Positions 17,067-21,361 of a stretch of DNA of 64,000 bases are shown one piece after another. The stretch covers positions 2,480,001 through 2,544,000 of the forward strand of contig NC_013922.1 of NCBI RefSeq assembly GCF_000025625.1. The letters run 5' to 3'. A program made the translations under genes and the position numbers. Each line of letters begins with the position of its first letter. Within the stretch, counting starts at the first letter, position 1. The DNA comes from Natrialba magadii ATCC 43099. Its GTDB lineage: Archaea; Halobacteriota; Halobacteria; Halobacteriales; Natrialbaceae. Under the pieces are notes generated by a model, which saw only the letters and a program-made list of their open reading frames with translations, searched no databases and was not told where the DNA came from.

Positions 17067-17087
17067 CCAATACCCAAGGGACGGGTG

Positions 17088-18305
17088 ATGACTGACACTG
17101 TGGACGACGTCGACCTCCCATATGACGAGGACGAGGCGTCCCAACAGGAGAAAATCCAGGCACTCGAGGACAAGCTGGAGATCCTCGAGTCGCAAAACGA
17201 GGAGATGCGAGACAAGCTCCTCGATGCGAACGCCGAGAACAACAAGTACCAGCAGAAGCTTGAGCGGCTCACGCACGAGAACAAGAAGCTAAAGCAGTCC
17301 CCGCTGTTCGTCGCCACCGTCCAAGAGATGACCGACGAGGGCGTCATCATCAAACAGCACGGGAACAACCAGGAAGCGCTGACCGAAGTCACCGACGAGA
17401 TGCGCGAGGAGATCGAACCCGACGCCCGGGTTGCCGTCAACAACTCCCTCTCTATCGTCAAGACGCTCTCTAGCGAGACGGACGTCCGGGCCCGTGTGAT
17501 GGAAGTCACCGAGAGTCCCGAGGTCAGCTACGAGGATATCGGCGGTCTGGAAGAGCAGATGCAGGAAGTTCGCGAGACCGTCGAGATGCCACTCGAGAAG
17601 CCGGAGATGTTCGACGATGTCGGCATCGACCCGCCGAGTGGGGTCCTGCTGTACGGTCCGCCGGGCACGGGGAAGACGATGCTCGCGAAGGCTGTCGCCA
17701 ACCAGACCAACGCGACTTTCATCAAGATGGCCGGCTCCGAGCTGGTCCACAAGTTCATCGGTGAGGGTGCGAAGCTGGTCCGTGACCTGTTCAAGGTCGC
17801 CCGCGAACACGAGCCAGCCGTCATCTTCATCGACGAAATCGACGCCATCGCGGCCAAGCGGACGGAGTCGAAGACCTCCGGCGACGCCGAGGTCCAGCGG
17901 ACGATGATGCAACTCCTGAGCGAAATGGACGGCTTCGAAGACCGCGGCGAGATCCGGATCATCGCCGCCACCAACCGCTTCGACATGTTAGACCGTGCGA
18001 TTCTTCGCCCCGGTCGCTTCGACCGTCTCATCGAGGTCCCCAAGCCGAACCAGGAGGGTCGCGAGATCATCTTCGAGATCCACACCCGCGGCATGAACGT
18101 CGCCGACGATGTCGACTTCGCCGAACTGGCTACCGAAGCCGAGGAGGCCTCCGGTGCCGACGTGAAGGCGATCTGTACCGAAGCCGGGATGTTCGCCATC
18201 CGCGACGAGCGCACCGAGATCCAGATGGAAGACTTCCTGGGCGCGTGGGAGAAGGTTCAGGCCGAATCCGACGAGACCCAAGAGGTCTCGAAGACGTTCG
18301 CCTGA
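17088..18305 (+). CDS. pan: Proteasome-activating nucleotidase (PAN, Rpt-like AAA ATPase)
   Basis: The 405-residue protein has an N-terminal coiled coil (about 18-70), an OB domain (about 75-150) and a AAA module: Walker A GPPGTGKT near 190, pore loop KFIGEGA near 223, Walker B FIDEIDAIAAKR near 247 and a sensor region AATNRFD. It unfolds substrates and feeds them to the 20S proteasome in the cytoplasm. No proteasome subunit genes are nearby. The C-terminus is SKTFA: a Tyr of the usual HbYX gate-opening tail is replaced by Phe and the residue before it is Thr. ATG at 17088 is chosen from the TATA spacing. Confidence 0.95.
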   Translation: MTDTVDDVDLPYDEDEASQQEKIQALEDKLEILESQNEEMRDKLLDANAENNKYQQKLERLTHENKKLKQSPLFVATVQEMTDEGVIIKQHGNNQEALTEVTDEMREEIEPDARVAVNNSLSIVKTLSSETDVRARVMEVTESPEVSYEDIGGLEEQMQEVRETVEMPLEKPEMFDDVGIDPPSGVLLYGPPGTGKTMLAKAVANQTNATFIKMAGSELVHKFIGEGAKLVRDLFKVAREHEPAVIFIDEIDAIAAKRTESKTSGDAEVQRTMMQLLSEMDGFEDRGEIRIIAATNRFDMLDRAILRPGRFDRLIEVPKPNQEGREIIFEIHTRGMNVADDVDFAELATEAEEASGADVKAICTEAGMFAIRDERTEIQMEDFLGAWEKVQAESDETQEVSKTFA

Positions 18306-18310
18306 ATCGA

Positions 18311-18781
18311 TCACTCCAGTCGGCTCATCTCAGTTTTGTTCGTTCGCTCTTGTGTAGTACTTTGTTGATCTCGAAGCGTAGCTTTGATAGCGTGTTTGAG
18401 TGTTACTCTTCCCGGTTTTCGCAGTAGCTTTCGTCGAAGTTGAAACGCCCGGAAATACTGCATGACTTCGTCTTTTGGAATATCTCGATGGGGGAGAGAG
18501 TCACGGTTGCAGCAGCGATTCGTGGCTCTCGCAGGTATTGACATGGACGTTTTCATCGGCATATTCACCGTCGCCGTGGACGGCGTATTCGTGGTTGAAT
18601 GGTCGTCCTTCTCTAAGTGGGTCGTATGCTCGGAATCTGCCAGTATAGACTGCTAGTGGCTCCTTCTCGCTCATTACCGGTCAGAACGTCAGCGAGGGCA
18701 AGTAACACCGTTACGCCAGTGAATCTTCTGCAACAGGTCCGCTGCGACCGATTCCGATCCAAGCACACCAAGCAGAATCAT
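18311..18781 (-). pseudogene. Decayed IS1595-type transposase (N and C ends, centre deleted, frameshifted)
   Basis: Minus-strand translation from 18781 gives MILLGVLGSESVAADLLQKI, then HWRNGVTCPR and a stop. That is the zinc-ribbon N-terminus of IS1595-family transposases with the second Cys lost. The next block reads VYTGRFRAYDPLREG, FNHEYAVHGDGEYADENVHV and NTCESHESLL, the DDE-domain C-terminal part. It changes frame near 18510 to HRDIPKDEVMQYFRAFQLRR with a KPGRVTLKHAIKATL tail. The middle, with most catalytic residues, is missing. Family assignment rests on recalled motif similarity. Confidence 0.75.
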
Positions 18782-18951
18782 GCCTAACTGACACCGCTGA
18801 CGCCGTGTCCTTGCTCTCTTCAATTCCACAGCGATAGCTGAACAGTATCAATAATCACCCCCGGAAGACAGATGTAATATAATAAATATTCACCATTATA
18901 TAACTTTCGCAGAAAGATATAAATTGTCCTATAATATTACTTTCAATTGCA
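18782..18951. other. AT-rich promoter region of the exported protein at 18952
   Basis: The 170 bp are strongly AT-rich compared with the core sequence. GATATAAA at 18916-18923 is a good TATA box, predicting a start near 18946 just before the ATG at 18952. No gene or terminal inverted repeat was recognised. Confidence 0.4.
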
Positions 18952-20379
18952 ATGAATGGTAAAAACCGCCAGGTGAATAGTAGAATTAATCGTCGAAAAA
19001 TCCTCCAAACCTTTGGTGGAGGAGGGGCTGCCCTTACGGCCGTCCCAGTCATCGGTTCAGCGACGGGTTCCAACAGTTATGTTGGCTATACATACGATAC
19101 TCTCACCCATGCATCGGGTCATGAGGTAAGAGGGCGAATCAACGAAGACGATCTTACTGGAACCATTAGCGTTGCAGGTTTTGACATCGAACTCAGTAAG
19201 TTAGAGAAACTGAACCAGAAAAATGGATCCATTGACATAAGGAGAGTTGGTGTTCTTGATGGGGAGAATTACGTTTATGAAACCTCTGAGAACAAAATTC
19301 CACTAAAGGTGAACGTAGTCAAATTTGGACAGTCGATTTCCGGAATGCTAAGTCGTCCATGCGGTGAATTTGGTCATCTTGGTTTCTATCTGTTAGATAT
19401 AGATGGCATACAAGAAGGTTTTAACATAGATATAATGTCTATTGATTCTAAGTGGAAAGATCATACCTTGGGCTTTAATGTGCCGGAAAAAGGTCTCCCT
19501 ACAGATTCGAGTCCAGCTCGATTTATTGAGCAAAAGAGAATCGAATATAATACCGAAGATCTGATTAATGAGCTAGCTAACAAAGAAAATGACGATTTCG
19601 TTGATCAAGAGAGTTTCCGCATACAGGCTGATGAAGACGCAGGGAATATTCACGAGATCCGTACTGTCAGCGATGATCTCGAGGGTAACTGTGAAGAGTC
19701 AAATATGGAGTATTGGATGGGCGTTTCGGCAGATGATGCGACAGCCTACGATTACGATGAGATCGGATTTAGTCAGTCAAACAGATGGCGATTCTGGGTG
19801 TTCTTCTCGGAGCGTCCAGACGACGTCTTTCCAGATAGCTGTGATCCAGCAAACTTCATTCACCCAAGCAATTATTCCCTCCACGTAGAACCCCACGATG
19901 AAAATCATTATAACGATCTCTACTTCTCACATCCTGAACCAGATGATGGAGATGGAGAAAGCGGTAATGATGAAGTCGGTTTGGCCTTAGACATTATCGG
20001 TGCCGCTGGTGGCCGTCTTACTGAGATTGGTGCGAGTATTGCGGACTATGTAATGGCAGGGTCGGGCAGCTCGACGGAAGTTAACTACGAACAGGGTGGT
20101 GCAATTTACAATTTCGACGTTGATTTGGATGGAGAGTATGATGATCTTCCCAGAGAGTTGTCTAATGAAGCTCAAACAACCCAATTCTCTCTCCGAGTAC
20201 ACAACGAACTGCATCCAGACGATTCACCCTACCTCGTCTCATTCCATCCACAATACACTTTCCACTATGCAGACAGTAATTCATGTGACTGTTTCCACGC
20301 CATGCCAATTGCCGCATACAAAACTATAGGACCCAACATAGCGTGGAGTGCGTTGTACGAATCTGTGCATGTGGACTGA
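18952..20379 (+). CDS. Unrecognised Tat-exported protein on low-GC island
   Basis: The 475-residue protein starts with a Tat-type signal: RRKILQTFGGGGAALTAVPVIG, cleaved probably after the Ala of GSATG. The mature part has no motif I recognise. It includes two Cys-bearing stretches (SRPCGEFGHLG; EGNCEESNMEYWMGVS), an acidic Asp/Glu/Gly run near residue 322 and a C-terminal NSCDCFHAMP. Codon use is strongly AT-biased (many AAT, GAT, ATA codons), unlike the neighbours, so recent acquisition is likely. It follows the transposase relic and precedes an opposite lipoprotein gene. A secreted or surface role is inferred only from the signal. Confidence 0.75.
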   Translation: MNGKNRQVNSRINRRKILQTFGGGGAALTAVPVIGSATGSNSYVGYTYDTLTHASGHEVRGRINEDDLTGTISVAGFDIELSKLEKLNQKNGSIDIRRVGVLDGENYVYETSENKIPLKVNVVKFGQSISGMLSRPCGEFGHLGFYLLDIDGIQEGFNIDIMSIDSKWKDHTLGFNVPEKGLPTDSSPARFIEQKRIEYNTEDLINELANKENDDFVDQESFRIQADEDAGNIHEIRTVSDDLEGNCEESNMEYWMGVSADDATAYDYDEIGFSQSNRWRFWVFFSERPDDVFPDSCDPANFIHPSNYSLHVEPHDENHYNDLYFSHPEPDDGDGESGNDEVGLALDIIGAAGGRLTEIGASIADYVMAGSGSSTEVNYEQGGAIYNFDVDLDGEYDDLPRELSNEAQTTQFSLRVHNELHPDDSPYLVSFHPQYTFHYADSNSCDCFHAMPIAAYKTIGPNIAWSALYESVHVD

Positions 20380-20490
20380 AGTAGGCTATCAGCAGTAAAG
20401 TAAGGATATCAAAGACCATCCTAGTTATGTTTGTCTGCAGTTTATTTGGTGAAATTAGTTAATGAACACACAACATAGGTGGTAAATGAA

Positions 20491-20904
20491 TTAACTTAAT
20501 GAAGCGCACTCGGATCTTGAGTCAATATATTCATCGTGAATTCTGAAACTAATAGCATCTCCTTCGTCTTGTGAGCAATCTAACTCGAAATTGGTTGTTT
20601 CTTCTAATCCAGAATCGACTTCTATCGCACCCGTTAATTCCATATTCTTTGATATTCTTTCTATTTCTAGAGTGGTTTTTGATGATGGGTTCAATCCGTT
20701 CTGGCCTTCATCAGGTAAGTCAATATTTTGATGGTAAAGTACTTCATTAGAACCATATATTTTGATATTCACATTCATGGGCTCATTCGTGTGATTTATT
20801 ACGTTTACTTGGAATGTACGTACTTCATTTCGAAAAGAGCATCCAGCCAGGATACCCGAGATGGGAAGAACTGAAGATAGTATTTTTCTTCTATTGAAAC
20901 CCAT
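20491..20904 (-). CDS. Unrecognised small Tat lipoprotein on low-GC island
   Basis: The 137-residue product begins MGFNRRKILSSVLPISGILA followed by GC, a Tat motif with an archaeal lipobox. It should be lipid-anchored outside the membrane. The mature part looks beta-rich (VNVINHTNEPMNVNIKIYGS, SSKTTLEIERISKNMELTG), like a small immunoglobulin-like fold, with two further cysteines (LDCSQDEGD; SECASLS). Codon use is AT-rich like the gene at 18952 and unlike the flanks. The two genes are convergent and probably arrived together. Function unknown. Confidence 0.7.
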   Translation of the reverse strand: MGFNRRKILSSVLPISGILAGCSFRNEVRTFQVNVINHTNEPMNVNIKIYGSNEVLYHQNIDLPDEGQNGLNPSSKTTLEIERISKNMELTGAIEVDSGLEETTNFELDCSQDEGDAISFRIHDEYIDSRSECASLS

Positions 20905-21024
20905 GCCTAAAATTTTTGCTAGAAGTGTAAATTGCTTTCGGTCTCAGCCAATTTGTAGATGAAATAATATTCAAACAATTGATTGTTCGTTTTTACCGTT
21001 CCGAACATGGACATCGGCTTGAGT

Positions 21025-21162
21025 CTACAGCGTCGCAAACACGAGCCACGGCACGATGAACAGCGCCACGGTCAACACCGCGAGGATCAACAGATAGCCG
21101 ATACCGGTGCCGACCGCGGTGATCCAGGACGGATGGTTAAACTCGGAGAGATCGACTGCCAT
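21025..21162 (-). CDS. Small one- or two-pass membrane protein (45 residues)
   Basis: The product MAVDLSEFNHPSWITAVGTG continues with one long hydrophobic stretch, IGYLLILAVLTVALFIVPW, and ends LVFATL. The ATG at 21162 sits 27-28 nt after a TATA box on the minus strand (21187-21193, GTTTATA). This spacing strongly supports expression as a leaderless mRNA. GC returns to the core level here, so it marks the right edge of the AT-rich island. I recall similar small membrane proteins next to GMP synthase in haloarchaea but cannot name the family. It is divergent from the guaA gene. Confidence 0.65.
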   Translation of the reverse strand: MAVDLSEFNHPSWITAVGTGIGYLLILAVLTVALFIVPWLVFATL

Positions 21163-21186
21163 ATTCCTACCGTTCGGTGACGAGGC

Positions 21187-21193
21187 TATAAAC
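21187..21193 (-). promoter_or_regulatory. TATA box for the 45-residue membrane protein
   Basis: TATAAAC as written on the plus strand (GTTTATA on the minus strand), 27-28 nt before the ATG at 21162. Confidence 0.55.
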
Positions 21194-21237
21194 GTACCGG
21201 AGACGAGTGTCGAGCGAGGCTGGCGTTCTGTACCGTG

Positions 21238-21283
21238 CGAGACCGGAGACCTGTGTCGGGCGAGACCGGAGACCTGTGTCGGG
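21238..21283. repeat. 23-bp direct repeat, two copies
   Basis: CGAGACCGGAGACCTGTGTC plus GGG occurs twice back to back in the divergent intergenic region between the small membrane protein and the GMP synthase subunit. The two copies are identical. Confidence 0.85.
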
Positions 21284-21361
21284 CGGCAGGCTGAACGACG
21301 AGCGGCCGACCGAGAATCGCTTCCGGTCCGTTTTTACCGGATCACTGGCTAGACACTGGCA

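What the first reader, a model, noticed from the sequence alone, without database searches (positions are those of the whole stretch)
18782..20990. AT-rich island with two unknown Tat-exported proteins
Between the relic and 20990 the base composition and codon use are clearly AT-rich. It encodes only a 475-residue Tat-exported protein and a Tat lipoprotein, convergent. Both have scattered cysteines and no family I can name. Imported, secreted protein pairs of this kind can be toxins (halocins) with a membrane immunity protein, or surface adhesins. The immunity idea fits an anchored small partner but is speculative.
Basis: inference. Interest (0 to 1): 0.5.

Follow-up and report, generated by a model that had tools for sequence, protein, structure and literature searches.

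The report
Haloarchaeal secreted toxin-like protein with guard
A small gene island carries an exported protein, probably a weapon against neighbouring salt-loving microbes, next to a membrane-tethered partner that probably protects the producer; similar pairs, with different kinds of guard, recur in other haloarchaea.

Summary
Confirmed: the AT-rich island (GC 0.41 against 0.62) holds a 475-aa Tat-exported protein (18952-20379 +) and a convergent 137-aa Tat lipoprotein (20491-20904 -). It was inserted: in two congeners the flanking genes lie 214 and 248 bp apart. The large protein belongs to an unnamed haloarchaeal family (29 of 391 genomes of the class).

(1) In 20 loci it is two adjacent ORFs, mostly overlapping; 19 of 20 N-halves carry a Tat motif, 0 of 20 C-halves do.
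(2) 32 of 47 loci have exactly one of three unrelated membrane-anchored partners alongside: this lipoprotein family (24), a propeller-type lipoprotein (4) or a two-helix protein (4). At displaced positions no neighbour family recurs in more than 3 loci.
(3) The predicted C-domain best matches alpha-hemolysin/leukocidin pore formers (Z 10.3), but cohesins and pilins come close (about 9) and there is no sequence match.

Best reading: a secreted membrane-active toxin with anchored, exchangeable immunity (0.5). Pore formation, joint export and neutralisation are inferred. Against: six intact split loci lack all three partners. Adhesin and receptor readings remain open; relation to known halocins could not be tested.

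The parts
18345..18868 (-). Shortened insertion-sequence relic at the left end of the inserted segment; in a longer copy (L003) the transposase-like ORF of 310 aa reads on the minus strand
   Evidence: blastn to own-genome copies L003-L006: 81-82% over 18345-18670 in three, 82% over 18345-18560 in the fourth, 87-90% over 18679-18868 in four; ORF in L003, named transposase-like from recall
18952..20379 (+). Large gene: 475-aa Tat-exported two-domain protein, putative secreted toxin (fused form)
   Evidence: ORF and translation; family of 47 distinct loci
18952..19062 (+). Tat signal region, about residues 1-37 (RRKIL at 14-18); cleavage site estimated by eye
   Evidence: sequence; R14 and R15 in 38 of 38 alignment rows that cover them
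19072..19401 (+). N-domain, residues 41-150, predicted beta meander; in split relatives a separate protein with the Tat motif (proposed escort)
   Evidence: AlphaFold2 model mdba59370962f, ten-residue pLDDT means 81-98; split ORFs
19636..20370 (+). C-domain, residues 229-473, predicted beta sandwich; in split relatives a separate ORF without a signal peptide
   Evidence: fold match to alpha-hemolysin, Z 10.3 over 174 residues
19963..20046 (+). Gly/Ala/Ser-rich hydrophobic segment, residues 338-365, mostly low confidence; candidate membrane-inserting segment
   Evidence: pLDDT under 50 at 338-353 and 360-365; family listing; role inferred
20491..20904 (-). Small gene: 137-aa Tat lipoprotein, putative anchored immunity protein, possibly an Ig-like beta sandwich
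   Evidence: ORF and translation; lipobox LAGC at Cys22; family alignment A5; only weak sequence hints of Ig/FnIII-like domains; no structure predicted
18311..21025 (.). Whole inserted segment between the PAN gene (17085-18305) and the conserved right flank
   Evidence: flanks 214 bp apart in G003 and 248 bp apart in G006

Best explanation
The pair is an exported, non-enzymatic, membrane-active antagonism protein (a halocin-like toxin) with its own immunity protein. Shown by sequence: the large protein is a Tat-targeted N-part plus a C-part, and relatives make these as two adjacent proteins of which only the N-part has a Tat motif. Inferred: the N-domain escorts the folded, silent C-domain through the Tat pore ('hitchhiking'); outside, the C-domain meets the membrane of other haloarchaea and inserts, probably through the Gly-rich hydrophobic segment of its beta sandwich, much as alpha-hemolysin-type toxins do. 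Inferred: the lipoprotein, tethered on the producer's outer face, binds the toxin and stops insertion. Relatives have a propeller-type lipoprotein or a two-helix membrane protein in the same place, which I read as alternative immunity proteins. The unit spreads horizontally as a small AT-rich cassette.
For: Co-occurrence: relatives were found with the large protein alone, yet 32 of 47 distinct loci have one of three partner families within 1.2 kb and none has two; outside 1.2 kb, in 403 kb, the same profiles hit one propeller ORF only (caveat: the three profiles were built from neighbours). Fairer control: blind clustering of neighbour ORFs gives families in 23, 4 and 4 loci at the true position and none in more than 3 loci at offsets of 1.5, 2.5 and 3.5 kb. 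A fixed RR-lipobox pattern is met within 700 bp of 26 of 47 loci against 18 of 120 displaced windows. Distances of C-domain and lipoprotein correlate (r 0.775, n 21; 0.477, n 18, without the closest clade; permutation p 0.0002, the floor of 5000 shuffles, in both), though shared descent would also give this. On the C-domain tree partner type changes at least 6 times and fused/split at least 10 times (20 of 40 inner branches well supported, 11 open, so the counts may be inflated). Split form: 0 of 20 C-halves and 19 of 20 N-halves have an RR motif; by ORF offset 12 of 19 listed junctions overlap by 1 or 4 bases (13 if the ATG overlapping the stop in L101 is used), and GGAGGTG stands just before the junction in 6 of 19. 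The lipoprotein family occurs without a large gene nearby in the own genome, G001 and G003 (best remnant E 0.036); the G003 copy has an altered signal region in the ORF listed. The large gene is broken beside an open lipoprotein ORF in G041 and G283 (DDE transposase inserted), G208 (frameshift) and G212 (internal stop, N part missing). No conserved catalytic set. Fold: of the 19 Foldseek hits with E <= 0.001, 14 are pore-forming toxins of the hemolysin/leukocidin type or similar by title and 3 more by recall, 2 are collagen adhesins (several are chains of one entry, so not independent); these toxins lead VIA-align with Z 10.3, 4.5 A, 174 residues, model 229-473 to chain 21-288. GC of the large gene is below the far flank in 49 of 49 loci, two of them duplicates and some by little.
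Against: Six intact split loci (L080, L084, L086, L088, L104, L107) have none of the three partner families within 1.2 kb. L084 has another RR-lipoprotein ORF about 0.6 kb off and L104 an adjoining ORF with two predicted membrane segments; L088 adjoins a DUF7345/DUF7343 protein, more likely a regulator; L080, L086 and L107 have nothing obvious. A toxin should not persist so unless immunity is elsewhere or of another kind. No sequence match to the Leukocidin family. Cohesin and pilin domains score nearly as high with lower rmsd (Z 8.3-9.0, about 3 A, 128-138 residues), so the sandwich may be a common arrangement; Foldseek TM-scores of the 19 best are low (0.16-0.19 by query). The segment is helix-like in the window's subfamily and beta-alternating in the other, so one insertion mechanism is unsure. 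The partner's orientation varies and it is not in an operon with the large gene in the window. Nothing was assayed.
Confidence: 0.5

Rival explanations
1. Surface adhesin or matrix unit: the large beta protein is secreted and held at the cell surface by the anchored partner, acting in attachment, aggregation or coat formation.
For: The C-domain also resembles cohesins, pilin domains and a fibrillar-adhesin domain (Z 8.2-9.0), and two of the 19 best Foldseek hits, the first among them, are collagen adhesins. The partner is anchored and no anchor was seen in the large protein.
Against: A retention partner should be conserved, yet three unrelated partners stand in for each other. Lone lipoprotein genes and broken large genes beside open lipoprotein ORFs fit immunity better. 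Patchy distribution, low GC.
Confidence: 0.2
2. Surface receptor or ligand-capture complex: the exported protein and its anchored partner bind a nutrient, signal or polymer.
For: Anchored lipoproteins and beta-propellers are common in capture and assembly systems (recalled); the predicted N-terminal beta domain could hold a ligand.
Against: Beyond the three partners no family recurs as a close neighbour in 3 or more loci, so no recurring transporter gene. High divergence and frequent breakage are unusual for such functions.
Confidence: 0.1
3. Virus-related cargo: a surface protein for superinfection exclusion or defence, moved by mobile elements.
For: Low GC, patchy, next to an insertion-sequence relic at a site with variable content; copies on two Halorussus plasmid records.
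Against: For the window protein: no match in 50,697 phage records at E <= 0.01, none confirmed in viral contigs, no PADLOC hit for either protein. One weak PHROGs hit (E 0.0093) among 68 family members.
Confidence: 0.1
4. The neighbours are coincidental: haloarchaea have many Tat lipoproteins and the large protein acts alone.
For: 15 of 47 loci lack the three partner families; 18 of 120 displaced windows hold some RR-lipoprotein.
Against: Blind clustering and displaced controls, and correlated divergence.
Confidence: 0.05

Closest known systems
Halocins (secreted antagonism proteins of haloarchaea; halocin H4, HapP/HFX_0892)
   Same: Secreted proteins of haloarchaea. Cells making halocin H4 are reported to show pinholes of about 10 nm, and its authors speculate that it perforates the cell surface (PMC6759562, abstract and passages seen).
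   Different: No sequence relation could be tested: the halocin H4 gene was not found in the collections reached. HapP is activated by a protease (PMC12893001, abstract, two sections and passages seen); I recognised no protease gene as a recurring neighbour here.
Alpha-hemolysin/leukocidin pore-forming toxins (PF07968)
   Same: The predicted C-domain aligns over its length (model 229-473 to chain 21-288, Z 10.3) and has a flexible Gly-rich segment inside the sandwich.
   Different: No sequence match; Tat rather than Sec signal (Sec recalled); extra N-domain or separate escort; anchored partner alongside.
Toxin-immunity pairs and polymorphic toxin systems
   Same: Exported large protein beside a small protein, lone small genes, exchange of partners.
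   Different: The C-domain is homologous throughout rather than swapped. A 2012 survey says immunoglobulin and beta-propeller domains had not been found among immunity proteins and that most immunity superfamilies are absent in archaea (PMC3482391, passages seen).
Tat hitchhiker complexes (e.g. hydrogenase small and large subunits; recalled)
   Same: One partner carries the Tat signal and the other has none, with adjacent, mostly overlapping genes.
   Different: No sign of a cofactor enzyme; fused and split forms alternate within one family.

Membership tests
Toxin-immunity gene pair | Exported effector next to a recurring cognate partner | tested here: met
   32 of 47 loci; blind clusters of 23, 4 and 4 loci against at most 3 at displaced positions
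Toxin-immunity gene pair | Partner present whenever the effector is intact | tested here: not met
   Six intact split loci without any of the three partner families (L080, L084, L086, L088, L104, L107), of which L084 has another lipoprotein nearby; L079, L081 and L093 also have other RR-lipoproteins next door
Toxin-immunity gene pair | Lone immunity genes, and effector broken while the immunity gene stays open | tested here: met
   Lone lipoprotein in own genome, G001 and G003, the last with an altered signal region; broken large gene with open lipoprotein ORF in G041, G208, G212 and G283. Opposite cases: L041 and L115 are broken with no partner found.
Toxin-immunity gene pair | Effector harms cells and partner neutralises it | not testable with these tools
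   Needs experiment
Alpha-hemolysin/leukocidin family (PF07968) | Match to the sequence profile | tested here: not met
   0 of 17 genomes at E <= 10; no such hit among 68 members at E <= 0.05
Alpha-hemolysin/leukocidin family (PF07968) | Cap-domain fold | tested here: inconclusive
   Z 10.3 and most top hits, but cohesins and pilins at Z up to 9.0
Alpha-hemolysin/leukocidin family (PF07968) | Membrane-inserting stem and oligomeric pore | not testable with these tools
   Candidate segment 338-365 only by position, composition and low confidence
Halocins | Secreted by a haloarchaeon | tested here: met
   Predicted only: RR motif in 38 of 38 rows that cover it
Halocins | Relation to a characterised halocin sequence | not tested
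   Halocin H4 gene not found in collections; other halocins not tried
Halocins | Inhibits other haloarchaea | not testable with these tools
   Needs experiment
Polymorphic toxins | Shared N-terminal part with exchangeable C-terminal toxin domains | tested here: not met
   The C-domain is homologous across the members aligned
Tat hitchhiker complex | Signal on one subunit only, genes adjacent and coupled | tested here: met
   19 of 20 N-halves with RR, 0 of 20 C-halves; 12 of 19 junctions overlap by 1 or 4 bases
Tat hitchhiker complex | Joint export of a folded complex | not testable with these tools
   Needs fractionation and co-purification
Known enzyme family | Profile match or conserved catalytic residues | tested here: not met
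   Only isolated weak hits in single members; best conserved polar positions Y48, C297, D49, T52, C447

The most novel reading that the evidence does not exclude
A new class of archaeal two-part pore-forming toxin: a signal-less, leukocidin-like pore subunit is folded in the cytoplasm, carried through the Tat pore by (or fused to) a beta-domain escort that keeps it silent, and the producer is shielded by exchangeable membrane-tethered inhibitors of unrelated fold, a CD59-like strategy in archaea.
Probability: 0.22. Interest if true: 0.87.

Novelty: new variant of a known kind. Interest (0 to 1): 0.62.

Why it matters
Few protein weapons of archaea are known by sequence, and immunity to them less so (recalled). 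This family gives 47 loci with a ready test: an exported protein, a candidate escort and candidate immunity proteins of three kinds. If confirmed it would show a leukocidin-like fold used between archaea, a Tat hitchhiking toxin, and recurrent exchange of immunity proteins of unrelated fold. Even if the function proves to be adhesion, the repeated fusion/fission and partner swapping is an unusual natural experiment in Tat export of complexes.

Tried and rejected
Family libraries (Pfam, NCBIfam, PHROGs, PADLOC, PDB sequences) gave no usable hit for the window proteins (the PDB sequence search was the large one only) or for the aligned families. The first AlphaFold2 model with 6 sequences was useless (pLDDT 45.1); 68 sequences gave 80.5. 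The viral structure library gave nothing at E <= 0.001. RNA folding of the stretch between the convergent genes is unremarkable (z 0.26). No relative of the window protein was found in phage records or confirmed in viral contigs; profile scans of viral and genome contigs were not possible, and a scan of genome contigs with the single protein confirmed none. The relatives seen lie in the window's order: 29 of 391 genomes drawn from the class and 6 of 392 from the phylum. HapP (HFX_0892) was considered: by the primer table its gene is about 0.7-0.9 kb and its activity is in a protease-released N-terminal peptide; sequences were not compared and no link is claimed. Rows dropped: profile hit L094 7405-8010 as spurious (L094 also holds a small C-terminal fragment of the family, not counted among the 47); duplicate loci L077 (= L046) and L112 (nearly L111) before the counts; five rows from the fused/split count as unclear or broken (L078, L041, L089, L042, L115). 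Of the 15 loci without the three partners, L079, L081, L084 and L093 have other RR-lipoproteins near, L041 and L115 are broken, L042, L083, L089 and L113 lie at contig ends, and L080, L086, L088, L104 and L107 remain. A paper on archaeal polymorphic toxins and antimicrobial peptides (mBio 2019, recalled) is not held, so I cannot exclude that some of these genes are listed there. The searches behind 'I found no paper describing this family' were made, of which I read only the papers named.
Full report
Observation. The window is a haloarchaeal chromosome segment (G000:C1:2480001-2544000; 'haloarchaeal' from its proteins and kin). The AT-rich stretch is real and by far the most AT-rich in the window: GC 0.412 for 18869-21025 against 0.623 elsewhere, next lowest stretch 0.560; GC3 0.415 and 0.299 in the two genes against about 0.84 in the flanking genes. 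It carries the two ORFs named, both with a twin-arginine motif, the small one with a lipobox. The relic is a shortened insertion sequence at 18345-18868.

Origin. In six congeners the flanking genes are present. They lie 214 bp apart in G003 and 248 bp apart in G006, while G001, G002, G005 and G004 have about 1742, 1205, 1186 and 1174 bp there. G001 has a TnpB/OrfB-type ORF at this place (PF07282, PF01385) and G002 and G004 a glycerophosphodiester phosphodiesterase ORF (PF03009); G005 has a near-identical ORF. So 18311-21025 is an insertion at a variable site.

Family. The large protein alone found relatives in 8 of 119 genomes, own included. A 6-row profile matched 39 of 392 genomes of the order at E <= 0.001, the weakest probably only by their Tat signals. 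A 14-row profile matched 29 of 391 of the class, 19 of 125 of the family and 6 of 392 of the phylum; the matching genomes all lie in the window's order. After removing duplicates 47 loci remained. A second copy lies in the window's own genome (L036). GC of the large gene is below its far flank in all 49 loci examined, two of them duplicates (mean 0.475 against 0.632; in a few, such as L040, by little), so low GC is a family trait.

Architecture. In 20 loci the protein is two adjacent ORFs covering the N and C parts of the profile. Of 19 junctions listed, 12 overlap by 1 base (TAATG type) or 4 bases (ATGA) by ORF offset, 13 if the ATG overlapping the stop in L101 is used; GGAGGTG stands just before 6 of them (L078 in that list is a frameshifted copy, and L086 and L114 were not listed). 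19 of 20 N-halves carry an RR motif and 0 of 20 C-halves do, nor do these have a hydrophobic N-terminus; the one N-half without it, L108, may start further upstream. On a C-domain tree of 43 rows the fused/split state changes at least 10 times (20 of 40 inner branches well supported, 11 open, so this may be inflated). This implies that the two parts work together, and that the C-part leaves the cell with the N-part or by an unknown route. Tat transports folded proteins (established knowledge), so a carried complex is the simplest reading.

Partner. The small lipoprotein family lies beside the large gene in 24 of 47 loci, in convergent, tandem or divergent order. In 4 loci a propeller-type lipoprotein takes its place (three of the four match PQQ/BamB-type profiles; the fourth, L087, matches no Pfam family) and in 4 a two-helix membrane protein; no locus has two. 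Blind clustering of neighbour ORFs gives families in 23, 4 and 4 loci, against none in more than 3 loci at displaced positions. A fixed RR-lipobox pattern is met near 26 of 47 loci against 18 of 120 displaced windows. Of the 15 loci without the three families, four have other RR-lipoproteins (L079, L081, L084, L093), two are broken, four lie at contig ends and five remain: L104 with an adjoining two-helix ORF, L088 beside a DUF7345/DUF7343 protein, and L080, L086 and L107 with nothing obvious. Divergence of C-domain and lipoprotein correlates (r 0.775, n 21; 0.477, n 18, after removing the nearest clade), as expected for genes inherited together. Partner type changes at least 6 times on the tree (same caveat).

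Lone and broken copies. The lipoprotein family occurs without a large gene nearby in the own genome, G001 and G003, with no clear remnant alongside (best E 0.036); the G003 copy lacks the RR motif in the ORF listed. The large gene is broken beside an open lipoprotein ORF in G041 and G283 (DDE transposases, PF01609), G208 (frameshift) and G212 (internal stop, N part missing). Frameshifts in draft genomes may be sequencing errors.

Structure. With 68 sequences the model of the window protein is good (pLDDT 80.5, pTM 0.84): an N-terminal beta domain (41-150), a linker with helices, and a C-terminal beta sandwich (229-473) interrupted by a Gly/Ala/Ser-rich hydrophobic stretch, much of it low-confidence (338-353, 360-365). 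In part of the family this stretch alternates small and hydrophobic residues around a GPxS-type turn, while in the window's part it looks helical. Foldseek: of 19 hits with E <= 0.001, 14 are hemolysin/leukocidin-type or similar pore-forming toxins by title and 3 more by recall, some being chains of one entry; two, the first among them, are collagen adhesins; TM-scores by query are 0.16-0.19. VIA-align: alpha-hemolysin Z 10.3, 174 residues, 4.5 A; cohesin and pilin domains Z 8.3-9.0, 128-138 residues, about 3 A. The tool's note puts the typical best Z of models without a clear match at 7-8. There is no sequence match to the Leukocidin family. So the fold resemblance is a lead and not membership. 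Conserved positions look structural (G45, Y48, D49, G70, G131, P289, C297, P330 and others), with no catalytic set.

Interpretation. An exported, unanchored, apparently non-enzymatic, fast-diverging, patchily distributed protein beside exchangeable membrane-anchored partners is best explained as a toxin with immunity proteins, and the fold points to membrane insertion. I put this at 0.5, and the specific pore-former-with-escort reading at 0.22. Literature seen: cells with halocin H4 are reported to show pinholes of about 10 nm (PMC6759562, abstract and passages), and a protease-activated haloarchaeal antagonism precursor has been described (PMC12893001, abstract, two sections and passages). 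The 2012 survey of polymorphic toxins states that immunoglobulin and beta-propeller immunity proteins had not been seen (PMC3482391, passages). A 2025 paper mentions predicted pore-forming toxins in Woesearchaeota metagenome genomes, taken to point to antagonism with bacteria (PMC12352652, passages). I found no paper describing this family, but a relevant 2019 paper is not held.

Noticed in passing
window 18306-21361 and L127-L132: The gap between the PAN gene and the next conserved block is a variable site: nearly empty in two congeners, a TnpB/OrfB-type ORF in G001, a glycerophosphodiester phosphodiesterase ORF in G002, G004 and G005, the toxin-like pair here.
   Followed up: partly
window 18345-18868; L003-L006: Shortened insertion-sequence relic; four longer copies sit elsewhere in the genome, two of them on contig C3. 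L003 carries a 310-aa transposase-like ORF.
   Followed up: partly
L036 (own genome, C1:603284-604768): Second, divergent member of the large family in the same genome, with a propeller-type lipoprotein directly downstream instead of the small lipoprotein.
   Followed up: yes
L037, L038, L039: Lone copies of the small lipoprotein gene in the window's genome, G001 and G003, beside the same 256-aa lipoprotein-like gene in at least L037 and L038; possibly a standing orphan immunity locus.
   Followed up: partly
L080, L086, L088, L104, L107 (and L084): Intact toxin-like loci without the three known partner families; all are of the split kind. Unexplained.
   Followed up: partly
L044, L092, L108, L109: A two-helix membrane protein family with a long loop recurs beside the large family; no significant Pfam match in the two members tested.
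   Followed up: partly
L046 (Halorussus caseinilyticus plasmid NZ_CP119813.1) and L091 (contig of the same length as Halorussus aquaticus plasmid NZ_CP100401.1): Plasmid-borne copies of the pair, the first near VapB/PIN and AbrB/MazE type genes, which supports horizontal movement.
   Followed up: partly
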